Of a stretch of 64,000 bases of DNA, positions 7,536 to 64,000 are shown one piece after another (the first letter of the stretch is position 1; every line of letters starts with the position of its first letter). The stretch is from Streptomyces viridochromogenes DSM 40736 (lineage in GTDB: Bacteria > Actinomycetota > Actinomycetes > Streptomycetales > Streptomycetaceae). A program made the translations under genes and the position numbers. The stretch spans positions 365,291 to 429,290 of the forward strand of contig NZ_GG657757.1 of NCBI RefSeq assembly GCF_000158955.1, given 5' to 3'. The notes beneath the pieces are model-generated. The model saw nothing but the letters and a program-made list of their open reading frames with translations, searched no databases and was not told the origin of the DNA.

Positions 7536-8834
7536 GTGAGTTCGCGCACTCCCTCCAGGCAGGCACGCACCTCCGGCGAGCGGGCGGTCGCCCGCCACGG
7601 CTGGGTGCAGGCCCTCGTCACGGTGGTCGGCGGGCTGCTCGCCATGGCGGTGGTGGCCGCGCTCGGCCTGTGGGCGGCGGGAGCCGCGGACCTCCCGGAC
7701 GGCGCCTTCGTGCCGGTCACCGCGGCGACGATGGTCACGGCCGTCGGGGGCACGGTGAGGCTCTCCGGGAACGCCGGCGACCTCGCCGGCACCCAGGCGG
7801 GCCTGACCGTGACCCCGCTGTCCGTCACGCTCACCGGCGCGCTGGTGGTCGCCTGGGGGTTCCTGCGGCCGTTGCGGCACCGCGCGGTCGCCGGTGCGAC
7901 GGAGCTGGCCGGCTGGGCCGGCAGGGTCGCGGCCCTGTGGCTGCTCGGGCTGATCGGCCTGACGCTCGCCGCACGGCACACGTTCGACGTCTCCCTCGGC
8001 GACGACGAGTTGGGCGAACTCGGTGACCTGTTCGGCGCTTCGCCGCGGATCGGCTTCACCACGGACGTTCCGCTGTCCGTGTTCGTCGGCATGGTGTGGC
8101 TGGCCGGTGTGCTGGTGCTGGCCCTGCTGGTGTCGCGCGGCGCCCCGTTGCCGGGCGGGCTGCTGCGCTTCCAGACCTCGGTGCGTCCGGCCGCGTACGC
8201 GATGGTCGCGCTGCTGCTGGCCTGTGTCGTCATCGGCGTGCTCATCGCCCTGGTCGTCGCGGCGGCCAAGGGACACGCGAGGGAGACGTTCGCGGTGATC
8301 CTGCTGGGCCTGCCCAACGTGGTGTGGCTGGCACTGACGATCGGCCTCGGCGCCACGTGGAACGGCAGGGTGGAGGGGCCGTTCGGGTTGCCCATGCCGC
8401 ACGTCCTCGACGAGGTGTTGCGCACTCCGGACATCGCCGAGCTGAACCTGCGGACCCTCTCCCAGTACGACGGCCGGGTGTGGTGGCTGCTGGTCGTCGA
8501 CGTGGTGCTGCTGGTCGGCGCCGCGTTCGTGATGGCGGCCCGGTCGCCTGCCCGGATCCGGGCCTGGCAGCACGCCGTGCACATGGCGGCCGCCCTCGTG
8601 CTCACCGTGTTCATGATCTGCCTGGTCGGGCGCGTCTCCGCGCACTTCGGCCTGTCGGTGCTCGGCATCGGCGACCTGGGGGGCAGCCTCGGTGGCCGGC
8701 TGTTCCTCAGGCCCCAGGTGTGGGGTGCGGTCGGTCTGGCCGTCCCGTGGGGGCTGGTGACCGGGTTCGCCGGTGCGCTGCTGGCGCGGCACGTCCGGCG
8801 ACGGGGTGAGGTGCGCGCCGAGAGGGCGGGCTGA
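7536..8834 (+). CDS. Streptophobe-family polytopic membrane protein
   Basis: 432 residues from GTG 7536. Hydrophobic segments that look like about ten spans are spread through the chain, e.g. WVQALVTVVGGLLAMAVVAA, VRPAAYAMVALLLACVVIGV and VWWLLVVDVVLLVGAAFVMA. Soluble loops carry PDGAFVPVTAATMVTAVGGT and NAGDLAGTQAGLTVTPLSVT. This pattern is what I recall as the 'streptophobe' family, conserved in Streptomyces and of unknown function, often beside Ser/Thr kinases. No transport or catalytic motif is visible. Convergent with the kinase operon across the tandem repeat at 8836-8935. Confidence 0.7.
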   Translation: MSSRTPSRQARTSGERAVARHGWVQALVTVVGGLLAMAVVAALGLWAAGAADLPDGAFVPVTAATMVTAVGGTVRLSGNAGDLAGTQAGLTVTPLSVTLTGALVVAWGFLRPLRHRAVAGATELAGWAGRVAALWLLGLIGLTLAARHTFDVSLGDDELGELGDLFGASPRIGFTTDVPLSVFVGMVWLAGVLVLALLVSRGAPLPGGLLRFQTSVRPAAYAMVALLLACVVIGVLIALVVAAAKGHARETFAVILLGLPNVVWLALTIGLGATWNGRVEGPFGLPMPHVLDEVLRTPDIAELNLRTLSQYDGRVWWLLVVDVVLLVGAAFVMAARSPARIRAWQHAVHMAAALVLTVFMICLVGRVSAHFGLSVLGIGDLGGSLGGRLFLRPQVWGAVGLAVPWGLVTGFAGALLARHVRRRGEVRAERAG

Positions 8835-51595: not shown

Positions 51596-53662
51596 GTGTC
51601 GCTCTTCGCTCGCTCCCGTCAGCTGCCGGACTCGACCGCGAGCGGGGCGGAACCGGATGACGACACGACGGAGAAGGACCCGGGCGAGGAACGGACGGCT
51701 GAGGCAGAGCAGCGGGAGGAGGCGGAACCGGAGACGAGCCCGGCCAAGGCCTCCGGCTCCGGCGACGCCCCGGACGCGGACTCGGACAGCAGCCCTGGCA
51801 AGGACCAAGACGCGATCCCGGACACCGGATCCGACGGCACCCGGACCGATGCCGCCTCGGGCACCGGGGCCGAGAAAACCCAGGCCGAAGCCACCTCGGA
51901 CACCAGTGCCGAGAACACCAAGGCCGAAGCCACCTCGGACGCCATTGCGAATAACACCCAGGCCGAAGCCATTCCTGACACCGGATCCGGACCGGCCTCG
52001 GACACCTCGCGGCCCGGCTGGTTCGGCTGGCGACGTCGCTGGCCCCGTACGGCGCGCGGCGTCTCGGTGGGGACGACCGTCCTGGCGGGGGTGCTTGTCG
52101 CCTTCGCACTGCTCGTACCGAACCGGATCGAAAAGATCGAGTTCGCCTCGTTCGTCCGGATCCCGGCCGAGGGTGTACTGCTCGCGGGTCTGCTGCTGGC
52201 GCTGCCGCCGAGGCCCCGTCGGATCGCGACGGTCGTCTCGGGCGTGTTCCTCGGGCTGGTCACGGTCCTGAAGTTCGTCGACATGGGCTTCTACCAGGTG
52301 CTGGCCAGGCCCTTCGACCTGGTGCTGGACTGGATCCTGCTCGACGACGCCACGGACTTCCTGCGCGAGTCGTTCGGCCGGACCGGGCAGGTGCTGGCCG
52401 TGATCGGTGTGCTCGCCCTGCTCGTCGCGGTGCTCGTCCTCACCACGCTGGCCGTGGTGCGGCTGACGAAACTGATGGTCCGGCACCGTCCCGTCGCGGC
52501 CCGTACGATCCTGATCCTCGGCACGGCATGGATCACCTGCATGACCCTGGGCGTGCAGATCGGCACCGTGCCGATCGCGACCAAGGGCAACGCGGAGTTC
52601 CTCGGCAACCGGGTGGACCAGGTCCGGGCGGGCCTGAAGGACGCGCGGGTCTTCGACAAGCAGGCCTCGGTGGACGCGTTCGCGAAGACGCCCCCCGACC
52701 AGTTGCTGACCGGACTGCGCGGCAAGGACGTCCTGTTCACCTTCATCGAGAGCTACGGCCGGGTCGCGATCGACGACCCGGCGATGGCGAAGCAGACCGA
52801 CGCCGTGCTCAAGGAGGGCACCGGCAGGCTGAAGGCCGCCGGCTTCGAGTCGCGCAGCGGCTGGCTCCAGTCGCCGGTGACGGGCGCCGGCAGCTGGCTC
52901 GCCCACTCGACCCTCCTGTCCGGCCTGTGGATCAAGAACCAGCAGCGGTACCGCAGCCTGACCACCAGCGACCGCATGACCCTCACCAAGTACTTCGGGA
53001 AGACGGGTGCCTGGCGGACCGTCGGTATCGTCCCGGGCGTGCGCCGCGCCTGGCCGGAGGGCAAGTTCTTCGGCCTGGACCACATCTACGACTCCGAGCA
53101 CCTCGGATACAACGGCCCGTACTTCAGCTGGACGCCCGTGCCCGACCAGTTCAGCATGGAGGCCTTCCAGCGCCTGGAGCACGGCAAGAAGGACCGCGAT
53201 CCGATCATGGCGGAGATCATCCTGGCCTCCAGCCACAACCCCTGGTCGCCCATCGCCCACATGATCGACTGGAAGGACCTCGGCGACGGCTCGGTGTTCC
53301 ACCGGATCAAGAAGGAGGGCACCAACCCCACGGAGGTCTGGAAGGACCCGGAGAAGGTGCGCGCCGAGTACCGGAAGGCCATCGAGTACTCGATCCGGAG
53401 CCTGACCGAGTGGCTGGAGCGCTACGGCGACGAGGACACGGTGCTGGTCTTCCTCGGCGACCACCAGCCGGTGCCGACCGTCCTCGCCGGGGACACCGGC
53501 AAGGACGTGCCGATCACCATCGTCGCCAAGGACAAGAAGGTCCTCGACCGGGTCGCCGACTGGGGCTGGACCGACGGCCTCAAGCCGGCCCCCGACGCGC
53601 CCCGGTGGGGCATGGACAAGTTCCGCGACCGTTTCATGACCGCGTACGGTCCGCAGGGCTGA
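51596..53662 (+). CDS. Membrane sulfatase/LTA-synthase-like enzyme with repeat-rich N-terminus
   Basis: 688 residues from GTG 51596 (GGAAGGA about seven bases upstream); ATG 51563 and GTG 51527 are alternatives. The first ~135 residues are an acidic Ala/Thr/Ser/Asp tail with three 13-residue repeats (AEATSD cores). Membrane spans at about 160-310: VSVGTTVLAGVLVAFALLVP, EGVLLAGLLLALPPRP, GRTGQVLAVIGVLALLVAVL. The extracellular alkaline-phosphatase-fold domain from about 370: DVLFTFIESYGRVAIDDPAM (metal D/E), TGAGSWLAHSTLLSGLW (Thr/Ser nucleophile region) and DTVLVFLGDHQPVPTVLAGD (D-H). It fits phosphoglycerol-transferase/sulfatase family members that modify cell-wall polymers. Overlaps the next, convergent gene by 29 bases. 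Confidence 0.85.
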   Translation: MSLFARSRQLPDSTASGAEPDDDTTEKDPGEERTAEAEQREEAEPETSPAKASGSGDAPDADSDSSPGKDQDAIPDTGSDGTRTDAASGTGAEKTQAEATSDTSAENTKAEATSDAIANNTQAEAIPDTGSGPASDTSRPGWFGWRRRWPRTARGVSVGTTVLAGVLVAFALLVPNRIEKIEFASFVRIPAEGVLLAGLLLALPPRPRRIATVVSGVFLGLVTVLKFVDMGFYQVLARPFDLVLDWILLDDATDFLRESFGRTGQVLAVIGVLALLVAVLVLTTLAVVRLTKLMVRHRPVAARTILILGTAWITCMTLGVQIGTVPIATKGNAEFLGNRVDQVRAGLKDARVFDKQASVDAFAKTPPDQLLTGLRGKDVLFTFIESYGRVAIDDPAMAKQTDAVLKEGTGRLKAAGFESRSGWLQSPVTGAGSWLAHSTLLSGLWIKNQQRYRSLTTSDRMTLTKYFGKTGAWRTVGIVPGVRRAWPEGKFFGLDHIYDSEHLGYNGPYFSWTPVPDQFSMEAFQRLEHGKKDRDPIMAEIILASSHNPWSPIAHMIDWKDLGDGSVFHRIKKEGTNPTEVWKDPEKVRAEYRKAIEYSIRSLTEWLERYGDEDTVLVFLGDHQPVPTVLAGDTGKDVPITIVAKDKKVLDRVADWGWTDGLKPAPDAPRWGMDKFRDRFMTAYGPQG
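51875..51991 (+). repeat. 39-bp tandem repeat in the sulfatase gene
   Basis: Three 39-bp units encode A-E-[KN]-T-[QK]-A-E-A-T-S-D-x-x (13 residues each); the third is diverged. In-frame, so unit gain or loss keeps the reading frame. Confidence 0.7.
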
Positions 53663-54347
53663 GGAACCCCTCCACGGCCGCGAGGAACTCCCCGGGCCTG
53701 GCCGCGTGCACGAGGTGCCCCGCGTCGAGGGTGACGTGCCGGGCGTCGGGGAGCACCTCGGCGAGGACGGCTATGTGCTCCTGGGGGATCAGGCTGGTCG
53801 GTCCGCCTCCGATCAGCAGCGTGGGCATGGTGATCCGCCCCATGTGGTCCCACCACACGGGGTTCGGGGCGTTGCGCTGTTCGTCGGTGGCGAGGATCAT
53901 CGCCCAGTCGTACGGCAGGTCCCCGCCGGGGCGTTCGGCCGGCGGGCGCGGCGGGTCCAGCGGGAAGGGTGCGGGCACGTCCTCCAGGACGAGCCGCCGT
54001 ACGAGCGCCGGGCTGTGCTGGGCGAGCAGGTAGGCGACGGCTCCGCCCAGCGAGTGGCCCACGACGTCGGTACGGGCGATGCCGAGCGCGCCGAGGAAGG
54101 CGAGCACGTCGTCACGCATCGCCTCATAGGCGTATCCACCGGGCCAGTCGCTGCGGCCGTGCCCGCGCAGGTCGGGGGCGTACACCCGGCGGGGCCCGGC
54201 GGCCAGGGCGGAGGCGATCTCCGTCCAGTCGGCCCCGTCGGCTCCGCGGGCGTGCAGCAGCACCATGGGGGGCGCGTCCTGCGGCCCCCAGACCCGGTAG
54301 GCCAGAGTGATGCCGTTCGCTCGTAGGGTGCGCGGTTCGGTCTCCAT
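53634..54347 (-). CDS. Alpha/beta hydrolase
   Basis: 237 residues from ATG 54347. Strand order: ITLAYRVWGPQDAPPMVLLH, ARGADGADWTEIASALAAGP, RVYAPDLRGHGRSDWPGGYA, VVGHSLGGAVAYLLAQHSPA (nucleophile Ser in GHSLGG), MPTLLIGGGPTSLIPQEHIA (acid region) and ARHVTLDAGHLVHAARPGEF (catalytic His). A small esterase/dienelactone or haloperoxidase-like member, cytosolic. Convergent overlap of 29 bases with the sulfatase-like gene, a sign of tight packing. Confidence 0.92.
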   Translation of the reverse strand: METEPRTLRANGITLAYRVWGPQDAPPMVLLHARGADGADWTEIASALAAGPRRVYAPDLRGHGRSDWPGGYAYEAMRDDVLAFLGALGIARTDVVGHSLGGAVAYLLAQHSPALVRRLVLEDVPAPFPLDPPRPPAERPGGDLPYDWAMILATDEQRNAPNPVWWDHMGRITMPTLLIGGGPTSLIPQEHIAVLAEVLPDARHVTLDAGHLVHAARPGEFLAAVEGFLSPADRTRS

Positions 54348-54480
54348 GCCGGGCACGGTAGCGAGGTGATCCCGGCCGACCGGGCTCGCTCTGCCCACAG
54401 CAGACAGCAGAAGGCCGCCTTACCACCGTCCGGAGAGGAAGGCGGTCACGCGCCGTGGTGCGCCGGCCTCGGGGTCCGCG

Positions 54481-57400
54481 TCAGAAGGAGTGCATGGAGG
54501 GGAGGTCGGGCAGTCCTTCAGGAGCGCCGAGCCATGCGGCCAGTGCCACCGGGTCCGGTTTCGCGCATGGCTCGACGACGATGCGGGCGAAGATCGCTCG
54601 CACTGCTTCCGGACAGTGGACCAGTGCCCGTGCCGCCACGGCGTCGGTGCTGCCAGGAGACGCCGTCCGAGCGTCTCGGCGTAGAGCGAGAGCGAGCCGG
54701 GCCCAGCGGCCAGGCTGCTGAAGACGTCTGGTCACCTGGCTCGTGGCGAGGCGGCGGGAGTCGTGCTGTCGTCCTTGGAGGCGGGCCAGGTCGGCGGGAT
54801 CGATGGCCGTGCCCTCGGCCGGGACGCCCGTCGCCCATTGGCACAGCCGGGCCGTGTACTGGTTCAAGGAGGGGACGGCTGTGTCGGGCAGCAGCACACC
54901 GGCCACGCTCTTCGGGGGTGCTTCCGCTCCGGAGCGCCACGCGTCCGCCAGCTCCGACACGGCGTGCGGGTCGGGACTCACATGGTGCAGTCGCCAGCGG
55001 ATGCGGTGCGCGACGACAGCCTCTGTGGCGAGCGCGGTGATTTCCTCCGGCACGGCCTCGGGAACAGTCCAGCAGGCCGTGCGGTCGTCCAGTCCGGCGA
55101 GGAGTTCCCGCCCGGAAGTCGTGAGACGTGCTGTCGATGACAGGGCCTCGAAGGCATGACTCGTCTGTATGCGCCAGTACGCGTACTGGAACTGGGCCCG
55201 CCGCCGCAGGTGCCGACTGCCGGCGAGGTGGGTGAGCTCCCGCCAGAAATCGACGACTGCGAAGAAGGCGAAGACACCGTGCAGAAATCCCGGCAGCGGG
55301 CGCGGGGTGTCGCGCCACGGCGCATAATAGAGCTCCTCATCGGCCCCTTCGCGTCCGGTCTCGTATAGGTCGAGGGAATCCAGGACCGCGTCCAGCTCCA
55401 TGTGGCGGAACTCGTGGATCAGGGTAGCGGCGAGTTCCACCGCGTCCGGGGGCATGCTGAGTACGACGCCGCCGAACGCCTCGCTCGACGACATCGACGT
55501 CATCGTCTCTGCGGTCGGCTCCGCGTCCGGCCGGGGTGTGAGGGCCGTGAGGGTCACCGTGAGGGCGTCGGCCTGCCCGGGCCTGAGATCGGCGAGTAGC
55601 CTTCCCGCATCGCGGATCGTCCGCCGCCAACGGGTCAGCGCCACCGGTCCCAGACGGTCGGGCGGCGCGAGAGCGTCATTCTCGCGGTAGGGGTCCATGT
55701 CCTCCAGGACGAAGTCGAAGTGGCGGCGGCCGACGGGCGTGCGCACCCGGTGCACGGGCATCCAGCCCGGCGGGTTCGGATCGCTCGGGCTCGGCAGCCG
55801 CACCTCCACGCCATCGCCCTCGACGACGGCCGCGGTCCCGTGGGAGACGACACGGGCCACGTCGGTCCCGGACGCGTGCAGGTCGGCAGCTCCCAGGCCG
55901 GGCAGATGGACATGACCGCCGTGCACGGGGACAGGCAGGGTGAAGGACAGCCGGGCCCGGACGCCGACCGCCGCCGCGATCGAGTGGAGACGGAGGAGGT
56001 CGGCCGGCGGAGTTCCGGCCCAGGTGCTCGGTCCACCCGGTGGTTCGTGCATTGCGCGTAGAGCCCAGCTCAGCCAGCGGCCCACGGACGGGTGGAGCAG
56101 CACGGCCGTCACCGCATTCGAGTCGGCCCGTTCCGCCCGCACAAGCAGGTCCCGTACCTCCGGGACCCTGAGTGCCTCGGTCTCGCCGGAATGTGCGACC
56201 ACGGCTGTCAGGTCGAGGAGTTCGTCCAGGACCACGGCTCGGGCGCCGCGTTGCTGGGCTCGCATGCGCTGGGCCAGGACCCTGTCCTCCGCGCCCGCGG
56301 CCATCGTCCGTAGATCGGCGGATGTGGGAAACGGCGGTCTGACCATGCCCTGAGCGAGCTCTCGTTGTGGGAGACGGTCAGCGGGCATCGGTGTGTAGCT
56401 CACCGGCCGCCCGGCGGAGCCTGAGTAGCTGCTTCCCGAGTAGCCACCGCCTCCGCCTCCCTCTCCGCTCCGGTTCACCCGGGGCCGGACGTACCGTGCC
56501 ACGAGGCGTCCGGCGGCGGAGTGGGAGGGGCTGGTCAGGGCCTGTTCCAGGGAGAGGTTCGCCAGGTCGGGGGTGTCGCTCGTTCGCGCGTCCTGGTCGG
56601 CCGGGCGGTTGTCGTCCATCGGGTGGCCTCCTCGAAGTGTCGCCGCACCGGCGTCCGTTTCCCTGCCTGAGGCGACCTTGCGCTCCACGAGTTCCGCTCG
56701 CACGGCGGCCAGATTGCCTGCACAGCGCAGAACGTCGGGATGCTGGTCTCCCAGCCGTCGCCCGCCGGCTTCGAGGACGGCCTTGTAGTGCTCAGCCGCC
56801 AGATCCGGCCGGCCGAGCAGATGCCAGGTCGTGGCGAGTTCGTGCCGGGCGGCAAGGGTGTCGGGGTGGTCGGGACCCAAGTGGCGTTCGTTGAACTGCC
56901 AGATGTCGGCGAACTCGTCCCGTGCCCGCTGCAGGCATTCGGGATCCGACTCATGGTCGCGGATCAGCCGGGCGCGTTCGTGGCGGGCCATCATCACGTC
57001 GGGGTGCTCGGGCCCCAGCATCTCCAGATAGCCCCGTACGGCGATCTCGATGGCCTCTTCCGCTTCCGTGGCGTGACCGGCCTCGCGCAGGGCACGGGCG
57101 AGGGTCACCCGGTTGGCCAGGGTGTCCAGGTCGTTCTCACCGACCAGCTCTGTGAACTCCCTCGACAGGCTGCGCAGTTCAGCCACGGCCTCCGCATGGC
57201 GGTCGCGCTTGTGGGCCAGGATCGCCAACTCGTGCCGGATGCGCAGGATGCCGCGCGGGTAGCTCCCGGCTCGCAGGCGCATGGCCAGGGCCGCGCGCAG
57301 CTCTTCCTCGGCGGACTCGTACCGTCCCAGCTCCCGCAGTACCCGGGCCCGGCCCGTCTTCGCGGACTGCAGGTAGGCGTGGCCGTTCGGCAGGGCGCGT

Positions 57401-59751
57401 GCGCACGCCCTGGCCACGTGCCGGTACAGCTGGTCCGCCTCGGTGAGGGCACCGGTCTGGCGCACCGCCCAGGCGCGGTGGAGGGCAGCGGCGATGGTGG
57501 CCGGGTGATCGTCGCCGAGCAGTCGGGCCCGGATCGAGCCGAGTACGTCGAGCTCGACGCTGGCTTCGCGGTACATGCCGAGGTTGGTGCGGTACTGCGC
57601 GGTCCGCACAGCGGGCTCGGTGGCCGCGACAGCCAGGTCCGGGTCCACGCGGTCGTCTTCGGACAGCAGGGACAGGACCGCGGCACAGTGCGGAGCGACG
57701 GCCTGCCAGCGAGGCCAGTCGTTGGGGTCGAAGGAGTCGAGCGGGCCGGTGTGCCTCTGCAGCAGTGCTGTCACGAGGCGCAGCATCACGGGCATCTGGG
57801 CGGTGAAGTCCGCATGGGCCCGGCAGGCGGCCCGGACCATCGGATGAATGGTGATCCAACGCTGGGGACGGCCCTTCGCTCCGGTGGCGGCGCCGGTTGT
57901 CTCGATCGTGATCAGCTGAAGGCCGGCGAGGCCCTTCACGGCCTCCTGGAACCGCTCTCCCGTCGGGGCGGTGAACAGCTCGCTCTCGGCCAGGAGTTCC
58001 GGTGCGATGAGTTCCCGGTACGGGATGGGTGCCGGCCCCAGGGCCGAGAGCAGCCGCAGAAGGGGGCGAGCCAGATCGGTGCCCTGCCGGTGCAGCAGGT
58101 CGAGGGAGAGCTCCCAGGTGCTGACGATCGCACGTCGGTTGCGCTCGTCGGGGCCCAGGTCCTTGTCGGGGTCGAACGCCATATCGGCCAGGCGGTAGTC
58201 GAAGCCGGATCGGTACGCGTCGAAGGTCTCGGGTGTCGAGGGCATCGGCCAAGGGTCATCCAGGGCACGTGCCAGATAGGAGCCGGCGAGATTGAGGGCG
58301 AGGGGCAGACCTCCGAGGTGTTCGGCGAGCTCCCGGGCTTCCTCCGTCGTTCCGGCACCCGGTGCGAGATCGTGGAGGACTCTGGCTCCGTCGGAGCCCG
58401 AGAGAATGCCCACGCCGACCATGTGCACCCAGTCGCCCCAGCGTTCACGGCGAGACTCGCGGCTGGTGAGCAACACCGTCCCCCAAGGGTGCGCGGGTGG
58501 CCTCAGCCAGCCCCGCCCCTCGGCGGGGCGCGCCGGTTCGGCCGCCAGCACCGAGGGATCGTCGACGTTGTCCAGGACCAGCAGCCAGGGCGTGGTGAGG
58601 GTGTTGAGGAACCGCCACAGCACATCGGCGGGGTGGGATGGCCCGGCGAAGTCGGCGACCAGGGCACCCGCGTCGAACGCGACCGCCCGCAGAGTCAAGG
58701 AGAGGACCTCCGCGTCGGCGGCCGACACCCACCACACCCGTGTCATGCCGGCGGCCAGCCGGTGTGCCGCCTCCAGGGCGAGGGTCGTCTTGCCGCAGCC
58801 GCCCATGCCGGACAGCAGCCACACGCCCGGCCGGGCGGCGTCGCCCTGGGCCCGCCGGGTGATCGCAGCGGTCAGTTCGCCGACCGTCTCGTCGCGTCCG
58901 CGCAGCCGGTCCGGTGCGATCCTGCGCTGCGGAAGGGCGAGCGGTACGGCTGCGGGTCCGGACGCGGGAAGTGAGGGGGACCGGCCGAACGGTCCGCCGA
59001 TCCCGTCCGCGGGCGACATGCTCTGAACGGTCGCCTCGGTGACGTCGGGCAGTGCCGCGGGCGCCAGTCGCCGCCCCAGCACATGCTCCAGTGCGGCGAG
59101 TTCGGCTCTGGTCAGGGTCTCGGCCCAGCGGTCCACCCGGCCCGCGGCGATCCGGCCCGCGCCGTCGCCGTGGTGGTGGCGGGAGACGACTCCCACGAGG
59201 TGGCCTTCGCAGAAGACGGCCGCACCGGACATGCCTTCCCAGGCGTCCTTGGCGGGATCCGGGTCGTCGGGCGGGGGTGAGGTCACCTTCAGGTCGAGCG
59301 TGCCCTCGCCCCGGTTGGACAGGGCCGCGCAGGTGGTGTCGGCGTGCTCGGCGTCCCGGTAGAGCGAACCGTCGGTGTCCGTGCGGAGTTTGAAGCGCGG
59401 GAAGCCCAGCGCGGTACAGCGCAGGACGACGTCCCGCTCCCCGATCCGGCCGTAGACCGCGCCGGTCACCGCCCCGGCGGTCGTCCCGCCCAGCCGGACC
59501 GGTACCACCAGTACGGCGACGTCGATGCCGGTGTGCCGCCACTCCACGGAGGCGGCGACGGCCAGTTCGTCGGGACGGTCGGCCTGGAAGCGGATCTCGA
59601 TGGTCGCCGCGTCCTCGACGACGTGGGCGGCGGTGAGCACGCGTCCCGCCGAGACGAGGTAGCCCGAGCCGCGCCGGCTTGGCCCGCCGTTCGCCGGTGT
59701 GACGACGATCTTGGCGACCCGCTCCGGCATGAGCCCGCGGTCGAACCGCAT
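54481..59751 (-). CDS. Trypsin-like protease/NB-ARC NTPase/TPR/HExxH peptide-modification fusion protein
   Basis: 1,756 residues from ATG 59751. (1) Residues 1-200: trypsin-like protease with a full triad, His43 (LTAAHVV), Asp77 (GIDVAVLVV), Ser175 (GMSGAAVF). (2) 270-660: NB-ARC NTPase with Walker A GMGGCGKTT (315-323), Walker B WLLVLDN (389-395), TVLLTSRESR, GLPLAL (482-487) and an MHD-like IHPMV (635-639). (3) 700-1020: TPR units of the GDDHPATIAAALHRAW and GPEHPDVMMARHERARL kind. (4) 1045-1756: Gly/Ser/Tyr linker (1095-1114), then a HExxH domain with LIHEFRHMELDAV (1446-1450) and YYAPWRDTPRPLPGFLHG, as in the putative alpha-ketoglutarate-dependent peptide beta-hydroxylases of FxSxx-COOH RiPP systems. 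Trypsin plus NB-ARC plus a Trypco2 neighbour is a known predicted conflict-system layout; joining it to the modifying enzyme is, to my knowledge, unusual. Confidence 0.88.
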   Translation of the reverse strand: MRFDRGLMPERVAKIVVTPANGGPSRRGSGYLVSAGRVLTAAHVVEDAATIEIRFQADRPDELAVAASVEWRHTGIDVAVLVVPVRLGGTTAGAVTGAVYGRIGERDVVLRCTALGFPRFKLRTDTDGSLYRDAEHADTTCAALSNRGEGTLDLKVTSPPPDDPDPAKDAWEGMSGAAVFCEGHLVGVVSRHHHGDGAGRIAAGRVDRWAETLTRAELAALEHVLGRRLAPAALPDVTEATVQSMSPADGIGGPFGRSPSLPASGPAAVPLALPQRRIAPDRLRGRDETVGELTAAITRRAQGDAARPGVWLLSGMGGCGKTTLALEAAHRLAAGMTRVWWVSAADAEVLSLTLRAVAFDAGALVADFAGPSHPADVLWRFLNTLTTPWLLVLDNVDDPSVLAAEPARPAEGRGWLRPPAHPWGTVLLTSRESRRERWGDWVHMVGVGILSGSDGARVLHDLAPGAGTTEEARELAEHLGGLPLALNLAGSYLARALDDPWPMPSTPETFDAYRSGFDYRLADMAFDPDKDLGPDERNRRAIVSTWELSLDLLHRQGTDLARPLLRLLSALGPAPIPYRELIAPELLAESELFTAPTGERFQEAVKGLAGLQLITIETTGAATGAKGRPQRWITIHPMVRAACRAHADFTAQMPVMLRLVTALLQRHTGPLDSFDPNDWPRWQAVAPHCAAVLSLLSEDDRVDPDLAVAATEPAVRTAQYRTNLGMYREASVELDVLGSIRARLLGDDHPATIAAALHRAWAVRQTGALTEADQLYRHVARACARALPNGHAYLQSAKTGRARVLRELGRYESAEEELRAALAMRLRAGSYPRGILRIRHELAILAHKRDRHAEAVAELRSLSREFTELVGENDLDTLANRVTLARALREAGHATEAEEAIEIAVRGYLEMLGPEHPDVMMARHERARLIRDHESDPECLQRARDEFADIWQFNERHLGPDHPDTLAARHELATTWHLLGRPDLAAEHYKAVLEAGGRRLGDQHPDVLRCAGNLAAVRAELVERKVASGRETDAGAATLRGGHPMDDNRPADQDARTSDTPDLANLSLEQALTSPSHSAAGRLVARYVRPRVNRSGEGGGGGGYSGSSYSGSAGRPVSYTPMPADRLPQRELAQGMVRPPFPTSADLRTMAAGAEDRVLAQRMRAQQRGARAVVLDELLDLTAVVAHSGETEALRVPEVRDLLVRAERADSNAVTAVLLHPSVGRWLSWALRAMHEPPGGPSTWAGTPPADLLRLHSIAAAVGVRARLSFTLPVPVHGGHVHLPGLGAADLHASGTDVARVVSHGTAAVVEGDGVEVRLPSPSDPNPPGWMPVHRVRTPVGRRHFDFVLEDMDPYRENDALAPPDRLGPVALTRWRRTIRDAGRLLADLRPGQADALTVTLTALTPRPDAEPTAETMTSMSSSEAFGGVVLSMPPDAVELAATLIHEFRHMELDAVLDSLDLYETGREGADEELYYAPWRDTPRPLPGFLHGVFAFFAVVDFWRELTHLAGSRHLRRRAQFQYAYWRIQTSHAFEALSSTARLTTSGRELLAGLDDRTACWTVPEAVPEEITALATEAVVAHRIRWRLHHVSPDPHAVSELADAWRSGAEAPPKSVAGVLLPDTAVPSLNQYTARLCQWATGVPAEGTAIDPADLARLQGRQHDSRRLATSQVTRRLQQPGRWARLALALRRDARTASPGSTDAVAARALVHCPEAVRAIFARIVVEPCAKPDPVALAAWLGAPEGLPDLPSMHSF
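56410..56469 (-). other. Gly/Ser/Tyr-rich linker inside the fusion protein
   Basis: Residues 1095-1114 read SGEGGGGGGYSGSSYSGSAG. A flexible link between the part starting at the internal ATG and the HExxH domain. It looks unlike its neighbours and could be a tether or an in-cis substrate. No experiment can be read from sequence. Confidence 0.6.
56619..56633 (-). promoter_or_regulatory. Internal ribosome binding site and ATG in the fusion gene
   Basis: On the minus strand GAGGAGG (56633-56627) is followed by seven bases and ATG (56619-56617), in frame with the fusion. It marks residue 1045 exactly at the TPR/HExxH boundary. Initiation here would give a 712-residue protein with only the linker and the HExxH part. 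The strength and spacing are as good as for any gene in the window. Confidence 0.6.
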
Positions 59752-59761
59752 ACGCCCTCGG

Positions 59762-60073
59762 TCAGCGCTCGCCGGGGGCCTGGTCGCCCGCGATCATGGC
59801 GGGTCGCGGGGGCTCTCCGGCGACCGGGACGGCGGTAGGCGTGAGGGTGAGCTTGACGCGCTGCGTCTGCGCGTTCGCGGAGCTGCCCTTGCTGCTCGCG
59901 TCGACCACCCAGAACCGGATCTTGGCGTCCGCGCCCGCCTCGCGGGTGACGGCGACGGTCGCCTCGATCTCGACGGGGCCGGCCTCGAACCGGATGGCCT
60001 CACCTGCGCCGTCCGTCAGCGCGGTGGTCAGCTGGCTCCTCAACTCCTGGATCATGTCAGACAGTTCGATCAC
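59762..60073 (-). CDS. Trypco2-like protein (trypsin-co-occurring domain)
   Basis: 103 residues from GTG 60073 (GAGGGGGG upstream). Reads LSDMIQELRSQLTTALTDGA, GEAIRFEAGPVEIEATVAVT, REAGADAKIRFWVVDASSKG and QTQRVKLTLTPTAVPVAG. The pattern 'I-Q-x-L-R-x-Q-L ... I-R-F-x-x-G-x-V-E-x-E ... A-x-I-x-F-W-V-V' is what I recall as Trypco2 from the conflict-system survey of Aravind's group, encoded next to trypsin/STAND genes. Its stop is 10 bases before the fusion start, so the two are an operon. Function unknown; likely a binding partner or inhibitor of the protease or NTPase. Confidence 0.75.
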   Translation of the reverse strand: MIELSDMIQELRSQLTTALTDGAGEAIRFEAGPVEIEATVAVTREAGADAKIRFWVVDASSKGSSANAQTQRVKLTLTPTAVPVAGEPPRPAMIAGDQAPGER

Positions 60074-61777: not shown

Positions 61778-64000
61778 ATGCGCAGCCGCCTGAGACGACT
61801 CGTTCTCGGAGCCACGGCCCTGTTCACGGCCGCGTCCGCGTTACCCGCGGCCGCCGCCCCGAGTCAGGCACGAGCGGAGCAGCACCCTTCCCGCGACGGC
61901 ATGTCCGCCGTCATCCGCTACACCGAGTACGGCATCCCGCACATCCTCGCGAAGAACTACGCCGACCTCGGCTTCGGCACGGGCTGGGCGCAGGCCGCCG
62001 ACGAGGTCTGCACGCTCGCGGACGGGTTCGTGACCCTGCGGGGCGAGCGCTCCCGGTACTTCGGCGCCGGCACGGCAGCCGACGGCGCCCTCTCCGGGGC
62101 CAGGACGAACCTCGCCAGTGACCTGTACTTCCGCGGGGTCCGTGAGACGCGCACCGTGGAGAAGGTGCTCGCCGAGCCCGCTCCCCTGGGCCCGAGCCGC
62201 GACGTCCGGGGCATGATGCGGGGCTGGGCGGCCGGTTACAACGCCTGGCTGAAGAAGAACAGGATCACGGATCCCGCCTGTGCGGGCGCTTCCTGGGTCC
62301 GGCCGGTCACCGAGGTCGACGTGGCCGCGCGTGGGCTCGCCATCGCCGCGATCTCCGGCGAGGGACGCTTCGTGGACACGATCACGACCGCGCGGCCCCC
62401 GACCCCGGCCACGTCCACCGGCGCCCGGTCCGCCCGCCCCGACGCGAAGGCCGTGGCGAAAGCGGCGGACGAGCTGTGGGGCGATCCCGGCATGGGCTCC
62501 AACGCGGTCGCGTTCCGCGGCGACACGACGGCGAACGGAAGCGGTCTGCTGCTGGGCAACCCGCACTACCCCTGGCAGGGCGGGCGCCGGTTCTGGCAGT
62601 CGCAGCAGACGATCCCCGGCGAGCTGAACGTCTCCGGCGGCTCCCTGCTCGGCACTCCGGCCATCTCCATCGGGTTCAACGCACATGTGGCGTGGAGCCA
62701 CACCGTCTCGACCGGTGTCCCCGCCAGCGTCCACCAGCTGACGCTGGATCCGGCCGATCCCACGACGTACCTCGTGGACGGCAGGCCGGAGCGGATGAGG
62801 AAGCGGACCGTGACGGTCGCCGTGAAGGACGGCACGCCGGTGACCGGCACCCAGTGGTGGACCCGCTACGGCCCCGTCGTCACCTCGCTCAACTCCCAGG
62901 TGCCGCTGCCGTGGACCGCCACGACGGCGTACGCGCTGTACGACCCGAACGCGGCGAACCTCCGCTTCGCGGACACCTCGCTCGGGTTCGGCAAGGCGCG
63001 GAGCACGGACGACGTCCTCGCCTCCCTCGCCCGGAACCAGGGCATCCCCTGGGTGAACACCCTCGCCGCCGACCGCGCGGGACACTCGCTCTACACCCAG
63101 TCCCAGGTACTCCCCCGCATCACCGACGAACTCGCGGAGCGCTGCTCGACGGAGCTCGGCCGGACGACGTACCCGGCGTCCGGGATCGCCGTCCTCGACG
63201 GCTCGCGCGGCGACTGCGCCCTCGGCAGCGACCCGGACGCGGTGGCGCCGGGCATCTTCGGGCCGGCGAGGATGCCGACGCTGAAGGACGCGCCGTACGC
63301 GGAGAACTCGAACGGCACCGCGTGGATGACCAACGCCGACCGGCCGATCACCGGCTACGAGCGGGTCTTCGGCACCGTGGGCACGCAGCTCGGCCTGCGC
63401 ACGCGCGGCGGGATCGAGGACGTGGCGGCGATGGCCGACCGGGGCGGACTGACCGTACGCGATCTGCAACGGCAGCAGTTCGCCAACCGGGTCCCCGCGG
63501 GCGATCTCGCCGCCGGGGACGTGGCCAAGGCGTGCGCGGCGCTTCCCGGGGGCACCGCGACGGGCAGCGACGGCAAGGCCGTCGACGTGTCGGAGGCCTG
63601 CGGGGTACTGAAGGCCTGGGACCGCACCATGGACACCGGCAGCCGGGGCGCGCTGCTGTTCGACCGGTTCTGGCGGAAGCTGGAACGGGCCGTGCCGGAG
63701 GACCGGTTGTGGAAGGTGCCGTTCTCGGCGGCGGACCCGGTGCGCACGCCGAACACGCTGAACACGGACGCCCCCAGCCTCGCCGGAGCCCTCGCCGACG
63801 CGGTGGCGGAACTGCGTGGTGCGGGCATCGCGCTCGACGCGCCGCTGGGCGCGCACCAGTTCGTCGTCCGCGGCGGCGAGCGGCTGCCGGTGCCGGGCGG
63901 CGCGGGGCAGCTCGGCGTGTGGAACGTCATCCAGCCGACGTGGGACGCGGCCGGCGGCGGCTACACGGAGGTGCCGTTCGGCTCCAGCCATCTCCAGGCG
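61778..64000 (+). CDS. Penicillin acylase-family amidase (AHL/lipopeptide acylase type), partial
   Basis: From ATG 61778 (GGAGGG five bases upstream) the frame stays open to the window end, so at least 741 residues are present and the C-terminus is missing. Signal peptide ~1-27 (RLRRLVLGATALFTAASALP, AAAAP). Ntn-hydrolase plan: alpha part with RYTEYGIPHILAKNYADLGF and GTGWAQAADEVCTLADG, a linker, then the beta-subunit start at WGDPGMGSNAVAFRG, where the Ser of GSNA is the N-terminal nucleophile after self-cleavage. HYPWQGGRRFWQSQQTIPGE and NAHVAWSHTVSTGVPASVHQ complete the site. Members remove acyl chains from cyclic lipopeptides, AHLs or penicillins outside the cell. Substrate cannot be told. 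Confidence 0.92.
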   Translation, partial: MRSRLRRLVLGATALFTAASALPAAAAPSQARAEQHPSRDGMSAVIRYTEYGIPHILAKNYADLGFGTGWAQAADEVCTLADGFVTLRGERSRYFGAGTAADGALSGARTNLASDLYFRGVRETRTVEKVLAEPAPLGPSRDVRGMMRGWAAGYNAWLKKNRITDPACAGASWVRPVTEVDVAARGLAIAAISGEGRFVDTITTARPPTPATSTGARSARPDAKAVAKAADELWGDPGMGSNAVAFRGDTTANGSGLLLGNPHYPWQGGRRFWQSQQTIPGELNVSGGSLLGTPAISIGFNAHVAWSHTVSTGVPASVHQLTLDPADPTTYLVDGRPERMRKRTVTVAVKDGTPVTGTQWWTRYGPVVTSLNSQVPLPWTATTAYALYDPNAANLRFADTSLGFGKARSTDDVLASLARNQGIPWVNTLAADRAGHSLYTQSQVLPRITDELAERCSTELGRTTYPASGIAVLDGSRGDCALGSDPDAVAPGIFGPARMPTLKDAPYAENSNGTAWMTNADRPITGYERVFGTVGTQLGLRTRGGIEDVAAMADRGGLTVRDLQRQQFANRVPAGDLAAGDVAKACAALPGGTATGSDGKAVDVSEACGVLKAWDRTMDTGSRGALLFDRFWRKLERAVPEDRLWKVPFSAADPVRTPNTLNTDAPSLAGALADAVAELRGAGIALDAPLGAHQFVVRGGERLPVPGGAGQLGVWNVIQPTWDAAGGGYTEVPFGSSHLQA

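What the first reader, a model, noticed from the sequence alone, without database searches (positions are those of the whole stretch)
54481..60073. Two-gene putative conflict system that fuses trypsin, NB-ARC, TPR and a peptide-modifying HExxH enzyme
Seen: a Trypco2-like gene, then 10 nt later a 1,756-aa gene with an intact Ser protease triad, intact Walker A/B, TPRs and an intact HExxH. Known: trypsin, STAND NTPase and Trypco2 co-occur in predicted NTP-dependent conflict systems, and HExxH beta-hydroxylase domains occur in FxSxx-COOH RiPP-like systems, usually as separate genes. Inference: sensing by TPR/NB-ARC is coupled to proteolysis and to hydroxylation of a target peptide in one chain, an architecture that may be undescribed.
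Basis: partly seen in the sequence, partly recalled or inferred. Interest (0 to 1): 0.9.

Follow-up and report, generated by a model that had tools for sequence, protein, structure and literature searches.

The report
One-protein protease, sensor and peptide hydroxylase
A soil bacterium carries one giant protein that joins a protein-cutting domain, an ATP-driven sensor and a peptide-hydroxylating enzyme, parts that its relatives make as separate proteins of a suspected immune system, and the joint between them may be a leftover of the peptide that the enzyme normally modifies.

Summary
dN/dS against the S. violaceus ortholog is 0.34. Six fusions including this one were found; the five put in a tree form one clade. 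They are rare (3 of 219 sampled genomes of the genus). Trypsin and Trypco2 occur in two (window, S. violaceus); the other four have neither and instead follow a small gene without a Pfam match. Related trypsin, Trypco2, STAND-TPR and HExxH proteins occur as separate genes in VMAP-type 'peptide-processing' conflict systems, where a FxSxx/RxD-like precursor lies directly upstream of a HExxH gene in 18 of 20 loci. New here: the linker before the fused HExxH domain resembles that precursor's leader in 3 of 6 fusions and is modelled as an ordered island in both models made; but BLASTP is insignificant (E 0.38) and 3 of 6 show nothing. Best reading: a single-chain condensation of a known conflict system, possibly with a precursor-derived leader in cis. 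Function is inferred, not shown.

The parts
59762..60073 (-). Trypco2 protein, 103 aa, GTG start
   Evidence: PF19631 1.9e-28; S. violaceus ortholog 89% identical in the same position
54481..59751 (-). 1,756-aa fused protein trypsin / NB-ARC / TPR / precursor-like linker / aKG-HExxH hydroxylase
   Evidence: dN/dS 0.34 against S. violaceus
59188..59670 (-). Trypsin_2 domain, residues 28-188; triad residues H43, D77, S175
   Evidence: Pfam 1.5e-8; 40-52% identical to 8 trypsins of unfused systems, 33% to the S. clavuligerus trypsin-STAND-TPR protein; alignment
58270..58830 (-). NB-ARC (STAND) ATPase core, residues 308-494
   Evidence: Pfam 1.5e-5; NF040586 FxSxx_TPR 2.1e-76 but 258 bits, under its cut-off of 300
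56692..57597 (-). TPR region, about residues 719-1020
   Evidence: TPR_12 9.2e-18, four stretches
56476..56583 (-). leader-like segment of the linker, residues 1057-1092
   Evidence: precursor profile: 0 of 2000 shuffles (23 precursors), 1 of 2000 (21 precursors); residues 1064-1073 mean pLDDT 91 between stretches under 50; against: BLASTP to the own-genome precursor E 0.38, dN/dS 0.87
56386..56475 (-). core-like Gly-rich segment, residues 1093-1122, predicted disordered
   Evidence: Gly run then [YF]-S in 6 of 6 fusions (GG-[YF]-S in 5, GGPAYS in L053) and Y-[RT]-P in 6 of 6; pLDDT under 50; dN/dS 0.73
55012..56328 (-). aKG-HExxH hydroxylase fold, residues about 1142-1580
   Evidence: VIA-align Z 29.9 to 22ob SjiH (403 aligned, rmsd 2.6) and Z 19.4 to 8s5f ChlBH HExxH domain (317 aligned, rmsd 3.2)
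55402..55416 (-). HEFRH motif, residues 1446-1450
54502..54810 (-). C-terminal helical domain, residues about 1648-1750, perhaps TPR-like, alignable in standalone relatives
   Evidence: alignment; structural neighbours are TPR chains with Z under 8, weak
54484..54540 (-). C-terminal tail with LPxM motif, residues 1738-1756
   Evidence: LPxM in 5 of 5 fusions whose C-terminus was in A1, 0 of 20 standalone rows; the sixth fusion, G536, ends before it; dN/dS 0.16 over 19 codons

Best explanation
This is a single-chain condensation of a known, uncharacterised class of actinobacterial conflict systems, the VMAP-type 'peptide-processing' systems. In the ordinary form separate genes encode a VMAP protein, Trypco2, a trypsin-EAD2 protease, a long protein ending in NB-ARC-TPR, a short FxSxx/RxD-like precursor peptide and an aKG-HExxH hydroxylase. 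Here a STAND-TPR sensor has been joined to the precursor-hydroxylase pair, leaving a precursor-derived leader-like segment as the linker, and in the lineage of the window and S. violaceus a trypsin of the system was joined to the front with Trypco2 as neighbour. Likely working: the TPRs sense an invader or stress signal; NB-ARC nucleotide exchange drives oligomerisation, which brings the protease domains together and activates them (Trypco2 as regulator); the leader-like segment docks on the HExxH domain in cis and keeps it competent, so that the oligomer both cuts and hydroxylates target peptides. Shown: domain identity, intact motifs, predicted fold of the hydroxylase, selection, rarity, one clade, gene order of unfused relatives. 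Inferred: descent of the linker from a precursor, sensing, oligomerisation, activation, docking, the substrate, and defence as the purpose.
For: Domains and motifs. Fold of HExxH. dN/dS: trypsin 0.22, NB-ARC 0.23, TPR 0.29, HExxH 0.34-0.37. Unfused loci: VMAP-C, VMAP-M0 and EAD2 in one gene, trypsin-EAD2, NB-ARC-TPR and HExxH in others (L112; also a VMAP gene in L051); a precursor, picked by eye, directly upstream of a HExxH gene on its strand in 18 of 20 loci, the same order as linker then HExxH in the fusion. The trypsin is closer to those of the unfused systems than to the S. clavuligerus one. The 12 best of 464 overlapping windows from six fused proteins (S. violaceus by its middle piece) are all linker windows, of L053, P0001 and L020. 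Of 23 free precursors, 8 align to the P0001 linker better than all but 21 or fewer of 1000 shuffles, the own-genome one with 0 of 1000. Ordered island at the leader-like segment in two models. Five fusions in one clade, SH-aLRT 100.
Against: No activity, target or phenotype is known. The linker signal fails in L054, L060 and G536 (194, 122 and 388 of 2000 shuffles reach it; with 21 precursors 282 and 175 for the first two). Composition-adjusted BLASTP to the own-genome precursor gives E 0.38 against the whole protein, 0.015 against the linker. In the free search of 2,490 ORFs the P0001 linker was not listed, L053's was at E 0.00063. Profile-profile probability is only 59% and 45%. NCBIfam finds no TIGR04268 in linker pieces. 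The leader-like stretch has dN/dS 0.87, although free precursors in four pairs ranged from 0.28 to 1.40. The P0001 linker holds no R-x-D, against 10 of 23 free precursors near their end. NF040586 is under its cut-off. No VMAP, MoxR, vWA or radical SAM was found in the neighbour genes scanned and no free precursor in the window, so the conflict-system role rests on homology.
Confidence: 0.6

Rival explanations
1. Self-modifying sensor: the linker is a true in-cis substrate. The HExxH domain hydroxylates its own Gly-rich/[YF]S or YRP segment or its LPxM tail, and the trypsin cuts at flanking Arg residues to release a signal or toxin peptide when the STAND part fires.
For: A Gly run with [YF]-S and a following Y-[RT]-P are kept in 6 of 6 linkers; LPxM tail in 5 of 5 fusions in A1 and 0 of 20 standalone rows, tail dN/dS 0.16 over 19 codons; several Arg lie around the segment.
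Against: Core-like stretch dN/dS 0.73; of the residue types named as targets of this family in PMC13060819 (His, Asp, Phe, Gln, Pro; passages) only the Pro of Y-[RT]-P is aligned in all six; 4 of 5 other fusions have no trypsin and G536 has no tail; specificity of the trypsin is unknown.
Confidence: 0.17
2. The linker is an ordinary flexible tether; its likeness to precursor leaders is chance or composition, and the fusion simply tethers a hydroxylase that acts in trans on other proteins.
For: BLASTP E 0.38; no signal in 3 of 6 fusions; dN/dS near 1; Gly-rich and in part disordered.
Against: 0 of 2000 shuffles for P0001 and L053, top 12 of 464 windows; ordered islands at the same place in models of two proteins 46% identical; same order as precursor and HExxH genes.
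Confidence: 0.28
3. A metabolic or regulatory protein rather than a conflict system: neighbouring acyl-CoA ligases, enoyl-CoA hydratase and alpha/beta-hydrolase form a pathway and the fused protein modifies a protein of it.
For: Neighbours are two AMP-binding enzymes, an ECH, a ChsH2-like and an alpha/beta-hydrolase and a penicillin amidase on the other strand; an AMP-binding gene ends 26 nt before Trypco2 in the window, and a gene ends 28 nt before it in S. violaceus.
Against: In the four fusions without trypsin the gene upstream is the small one instead; alpha/beta-hydrolases of window and L054 are 38% identical over 114 aa and placed differently. Whether ligases lie near the other fusions was not tested.
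Confidence: 0.1
4. The fused gene is a decaying relic or an assembly artefact.
For: S. violaceus has runs of N in the gene and the G536 frame ends early.
Against: Open 1,756-aa frame in a one-contig genome, GC3 0.84, dN/dS 0.34, five further records.
Confidence: 0.03

Closest known systems
VMAP-ternary systems with peptide-processing module (PMC7159879; section 24 read in full; other passages)
   Same: The paper names trypsin, Trypco2, AP-ATPase with TPRs, short FxSxx or RxD precursor and a zincin-like protein; our unfused loci fit it
   Different: Here one chain plus Trypco2; no VMAP, MoxR, vWA or free precursor gene found beside it; the paper reads the zincin-like protein as a peptidase
aKG-HExxH peptide hydroxylases: ChlBH/ChlH (PDB 8s5f), SjiH (22nu, 22ob), PflC/PosC (PMC12636437, passages), PesO (PMC13060819, passages)
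   Same: Domain fold and HExxH motif
   Different: The fusion named in those passages is to a radical SAM domain; no protease or STAND fusion appears in what we read
FxsT, NF040586 FxSxx_TPR
   Same: NB-ARC-TPR profile matched at 2.1e-76
   Different: 258 bits, under the cut-off of 300; the same genome has a separate FxsT at L051:8201-11230 (783.5 bits)
Trypsin-NB-ARC-TPR next to Trypco2, e.g. S. clavuligerus pSCL2
   Same: Two-gene layout and first three domains by BLAST and annotation
   Different: 1,103 aa; its match to P0001 ends at residue 1031, before the HExxH part; trypsin only 33% identical

Membership tests
aKG-HExxH peptide hydroxylase (TIGR04267) | profile score over curated cut-off | tested here: met
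   151.3 bits against 40
aKG-HExxH peptide hydroxylase (TIGR04267) | HExxH motif and family-conserved YAPWR..PRPL..G region | tested here: met
   H433, E434, H437 and neighbouring near-invariant columns kept
aKG-HExxH peptide hydroxylase (TIGR04267) | 2-oxoglutarate and Fe(II) dependent hydroxylation of a peptide | not testable with these tools
   needs biochemistry
Trypsin-like protease (Trypsin_2) | profile and His-Asp-Ser triad | tested here: met
NB-ARC STAND ATPase with TPR | NB-ARC over gathering score, P-loop, TPR repeats | tested here: met
   24.8 bits against 23.5; TPR_12 64.7 bits; GMGGCGKTT
Trypco2 | PF19631 over gathering score next to a trypsin gene | tested here: met
FxsT (NF040586, equivalog) | score over 300 | tested here: not met
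   258 bits; 269.4 and 276.7 in L053 and L054
FxSxx-COOH precursor (TIGR04268) in the linker | profile match | tested here: not met
   no match of two linker pieces at E up to 10
FxSxx-like precursor in the linker | likeness to free precursors of HExxH loci beyond composition | tested here: inconclusive
   3 of 6 fusions yes, 3 no; BLASTP E 0.38
VMAP-ternary system | VMAP, MoxR and vWA genes beside it | tested here: not met
   none in 7 neighbour genes between 47902 and 64000; one further frame (61841-63991 -) overlaps the amidase and is probably not a gene; the rest of the window was not scanned
FxSxx-COOH cyclophane system | FxsB radical SAM gene in the locus | tested here: not met
   none in the same neighbour genes; one lies at 6.69 Mb in the same genome

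The most novel reading that the evidence does not exclude
A bacterial immune-like sensor that carries its own RiPP precursor in cis: a built-in leader docks on the fused hydroxylase, the enzyme modifies a segment of its own chain, and activation of the STAND part lets the fused protease release that modified peptide as signal or toxin. Sensor, effector, precursor and maturase would be one molecule.
Probability: 0.17. Interest if true: 0.85.

Novelty: new variant of a known kind. Interest (0 to 1): 0.55.

Why it matters
I know of no worked-out mechanism for the peptide-processing branch of bacterial ternary conflict systems, whose parts are spread over several genes. A two-gene version that keeps protease, sensor and hydroxylase in one chain suggests by itself which parts work together and offers a small, expressible model. 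It also supports reading the HExxH protein as a hydroxylase rather than the peptidase proposed in 2020, and gives a test of whether RiPP-like precursors are the signals of these systems.

Tried and rejected
Other names for the trypsin: MarP-like and Avs1b partial matches, LmuA 4.3e-9 over the trypsin part only. Filing the protein as FxsT: under the cut-off. A free precursor gene in the window: none listed with a significant score. A link to radical SAM: none beside it; the FxsB of this genome lies at 6.69 Mb. The alpha/beta-hydrolases beside the window fusion and L054 as a shared part: placed differently, 38% identical over 114 aa. Called ORFs of L053 and L054 start far upstream; their first 370-400 residues run over the small upstream gene in another frame and were given no weight. 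TIGR04268 over the whole genome gave 40 places, none over the cut-off. Structure neighbours of the C-terminal helical domain are TPR chains at Z under 8, which may be only a common arrangement. Pfam has no family for the small gene of L054 at E 0.01. No vWA domain was seen by Pfam in the long STAND proteins of L112 and L119, although PMC7159879 describes one. Dropped rows: 5 of 86 HExxH sequences before the tree; G536 was found later and is not in the tree; L060 and L126 were left out of the structure alignments. Free precursors were picked by eye, and the linker was chosen after seeing it.
Full report
OBSERVATION. The window (64 kb of an 8.65-Mb single-contig genome, at 365291-429290) holds on its minus strand a 103-aa Trypco2 gene (59762-60073) and, after 10 nt, a 1,756-aa gene (54481-59751). 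Pfam and NCBIfam give Trypsin_2, NB-ARC, TPR_12 and mod_HExxH, each over its curated score. NF040586 (FxSxx_TPR) matches at 2.1e-76 but scores 258 bits, under its cut-off of 300. The genus is not named; the one named relative found by the search for related loci is Streptomyces violaceus.

RELATIVES. S. violaceus L020 has both genes, 80% identical in the best segment, interrupted by runs of N. Of 150 genomes of the genus, 118 have a mod_HExxH match; in the listed (capped) matches the three longest open frames are G003, G083 and G000, and the first two, L053 and L054, are NB-ARC-TPR-HExxH fusions. With residues 1000-1756 as query at E 1e-60, 19 of 219 genomes of the genus match, and 3 of them (G000, G003, G083) match from the TPR end on into HExxH; the other rows begin in or after the linker. 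In 216 genomes of the class 21 match at 1e-45 and of the rows listed only G000's spans the linker. In 220 of the family 2 match at 1e-90, G000 and G536. These samples overlap. Among plasmids, 1 of 100 records with a match holds most of the query, that of Streptomyces sp. NBC_01483 (L060). That makes six fusions. By tblastn, L053, L054, L060 and the G536 stretch (L131) hold no trypsin of this kind and no Trypco2, and all four hold the same kind of small gene (about 155-170 aa where whole) upstream; S. violaceus has trypsin and Trypco2 and not the small gene.

TREE AND SELECTION. In a tree of 81 HExxH domains the five fusions then known are one side of a branch with SH-aLRT 100 (quick method, no bootstrap), so a single origin is not excluded. 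Against S. violaceus dN/dS is 0.22 for trypsin, 0.23 NB-ARC, 0.29 TPR, 0.34-0.37 HExxH, 0.34 overall.

HYDROXYLASE. Two solved sequences match: 22nu (E 1.3e-33) and 8s5f, ChlH (1.2e-12). A model of residues 1014-1756 (mean pLDDT 81.1, pTM 0.83) matches 22ob, SjiH, at Z 29.9 and the ChlBH HExxH domain at Z 19.4. Family-conserved residues are kept. PMC12636437 and PMC13060819 (passages) describe this family as 2-oxoglutarate dependent hydroxylases, with backbone cleavage by PflC and PosC. The founding paper (Nat Chem 2024) is not held and is known to me here only through these passages and PDB titles.

UNFUSED SYSTEM. Of 20 loci fetched around separate HExxH genes, 18 have a short FxSxx-like precursor, picked by eye, directly upstream of a HExxH gene on its strand (L116 and L120 read; the L120 and L128 HExxH genes are placed); in L126 and L129 I found none. 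Eleven have a trypsin gene related to ours and seven a Trypco2 gene. Pfam was run on three genes of L112, one of L119 and three of L051: VMAP-C, VMAP-M0 and EAD2 in one gene each of L112 and L051, Trypsin_2 with EAD2 in another of L112, NB-ARC with TPR in the long genes of L112 and L119. This fits the peptide-processing VMAP-ternary system of PMC7159879 (section 24), with its RxD type of peptide: 10 of 23 free precursors have R-x-D in the last eight residues. Our trypsin is 40-52% identical to eight of these trypsins but 33% to that of the S. clavuligerus trypsin-STAND-TPR protein.

LINKER. Between TPR and HExxH P0001 reads PDLANLSLEQALTSPSHSAAGRLVARYVRPRVNRSGEGGGGGGYSGSS. A free precursor reads LVDLSGVSLQALRSLDGPDFTESLERLLHHVDGPQGLTASNFNGSRFDGSTG (L117; TIGR04268 E 1e-4, 22.5 bits, under the cut-off of 28). 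For: with a profile of 21 precursors 0, 1 and 17 of 2000 shuffles reach the linkers of L053, P0001 and L020, with 23 precursors 0, 0 and 6; the 12 best of 464 overlapping windows from six fused proteins are linker windows of these three; 8 of 23 free precursors align to the P0001 linker better than all but 21 or fewer of 1000 shuffles, and that of the same genome (L051) scores best in P0001 at 1058-1101 with 0 of 1000; P0001 residues 1064-1073 and the L053 blocks 61-80 and 91-100 are modelled at mean pLDDT 82-91 between stretches under 50. Against: L054, L060 and G536 show nothing (194, 122, 388 of 2000; 282 and 175 for the first two); composition-adjusted BLASTP gives E 0.38 against the whole protein and 0.015 against the linker alone; profile-profile probability is 59% and 45% (P 9e-5 and 2e-4 for the single comparison); NCBIfam finds no TIGR04268 in linker pieces; in 2,490 ORFs scanned only L053 of the fusions was listed; the segment has dN/dS 0.87, while free precursors in four pairs ranged from 0.28 to 1.40. 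I put descent from a precursor at about 0.65. The linker was chosen after seeing it, so the shuffle counts flatter it.

MECHANISM. Shown: parts, predicted fold, selection, gene order. Inferred: TPR sensing, ATP-driven assembly, protease activation by proximity with Trypco2 as regulator, and a leader in cis that keeps the hydroxylase competent. PflC did not hydroxylate peptides truncated at the N-terminus and hydrolysed them instead (PMC12636437, passages), which makes a built-in leader sensible. The substrate is unknown; an own segment (Gly-rich [YF]S, YRP, LPxM tail) is the boldest option.

NOVELTY. Trypsin fused to STAND proteins is described (PMC7159879 and PMC8195603, passages) and the parts co-occur in PMC7159879, but no paper found joins HExxH hydroxylase to STAND or protease (open-licence PMC only; subscription papers not seen). 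I call it a new variant of a known kind.

Noticed in passing
G000:C1 6.762-6.782 Mb (L051): The same genome has a VMAP system with separate FxsT (783.5 bits), caspase-like, precursor-like and HExxH genes.
   Followed up: partly
G000:C1 6.680-6.700 Mb (L050): A third HExxH system of this genome, with FxsB radical SAM, a divergent FxsA-like ORF (8269-8595 -) and a 1,510-aa protein with a caspase-like part.
   Followed up: partly
L113, L114, L115: Two precursor-HExxH gene pairs per locus lie divergently beside one trypsin gene, with two precursor types.
   Followed up: no
L053, L054, L060, L131 upstream of the fusion: A small gene family (MLEQAL..GTDxWxGLR..) without a Pfam match takes the place of trypsin and Trypco2; by eye a similar gene precedes the STAND gene in L052. 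Possibly an adaptor.
   Followed up: partly
window:60100-61623 and 53634-54398: AMP-binding enzyme (acyl-CoA ligase-like) 26 nt before Trypco2 and an alpha/beta-hydrolase after the fusion, same strand; genes with alike C-termini lie at the same places in S. violaceus.
   Followed up: partly
G003 (L053 and L112): One genome holds both a fusion and an unfused VMAP-type system.
   Followed up: no
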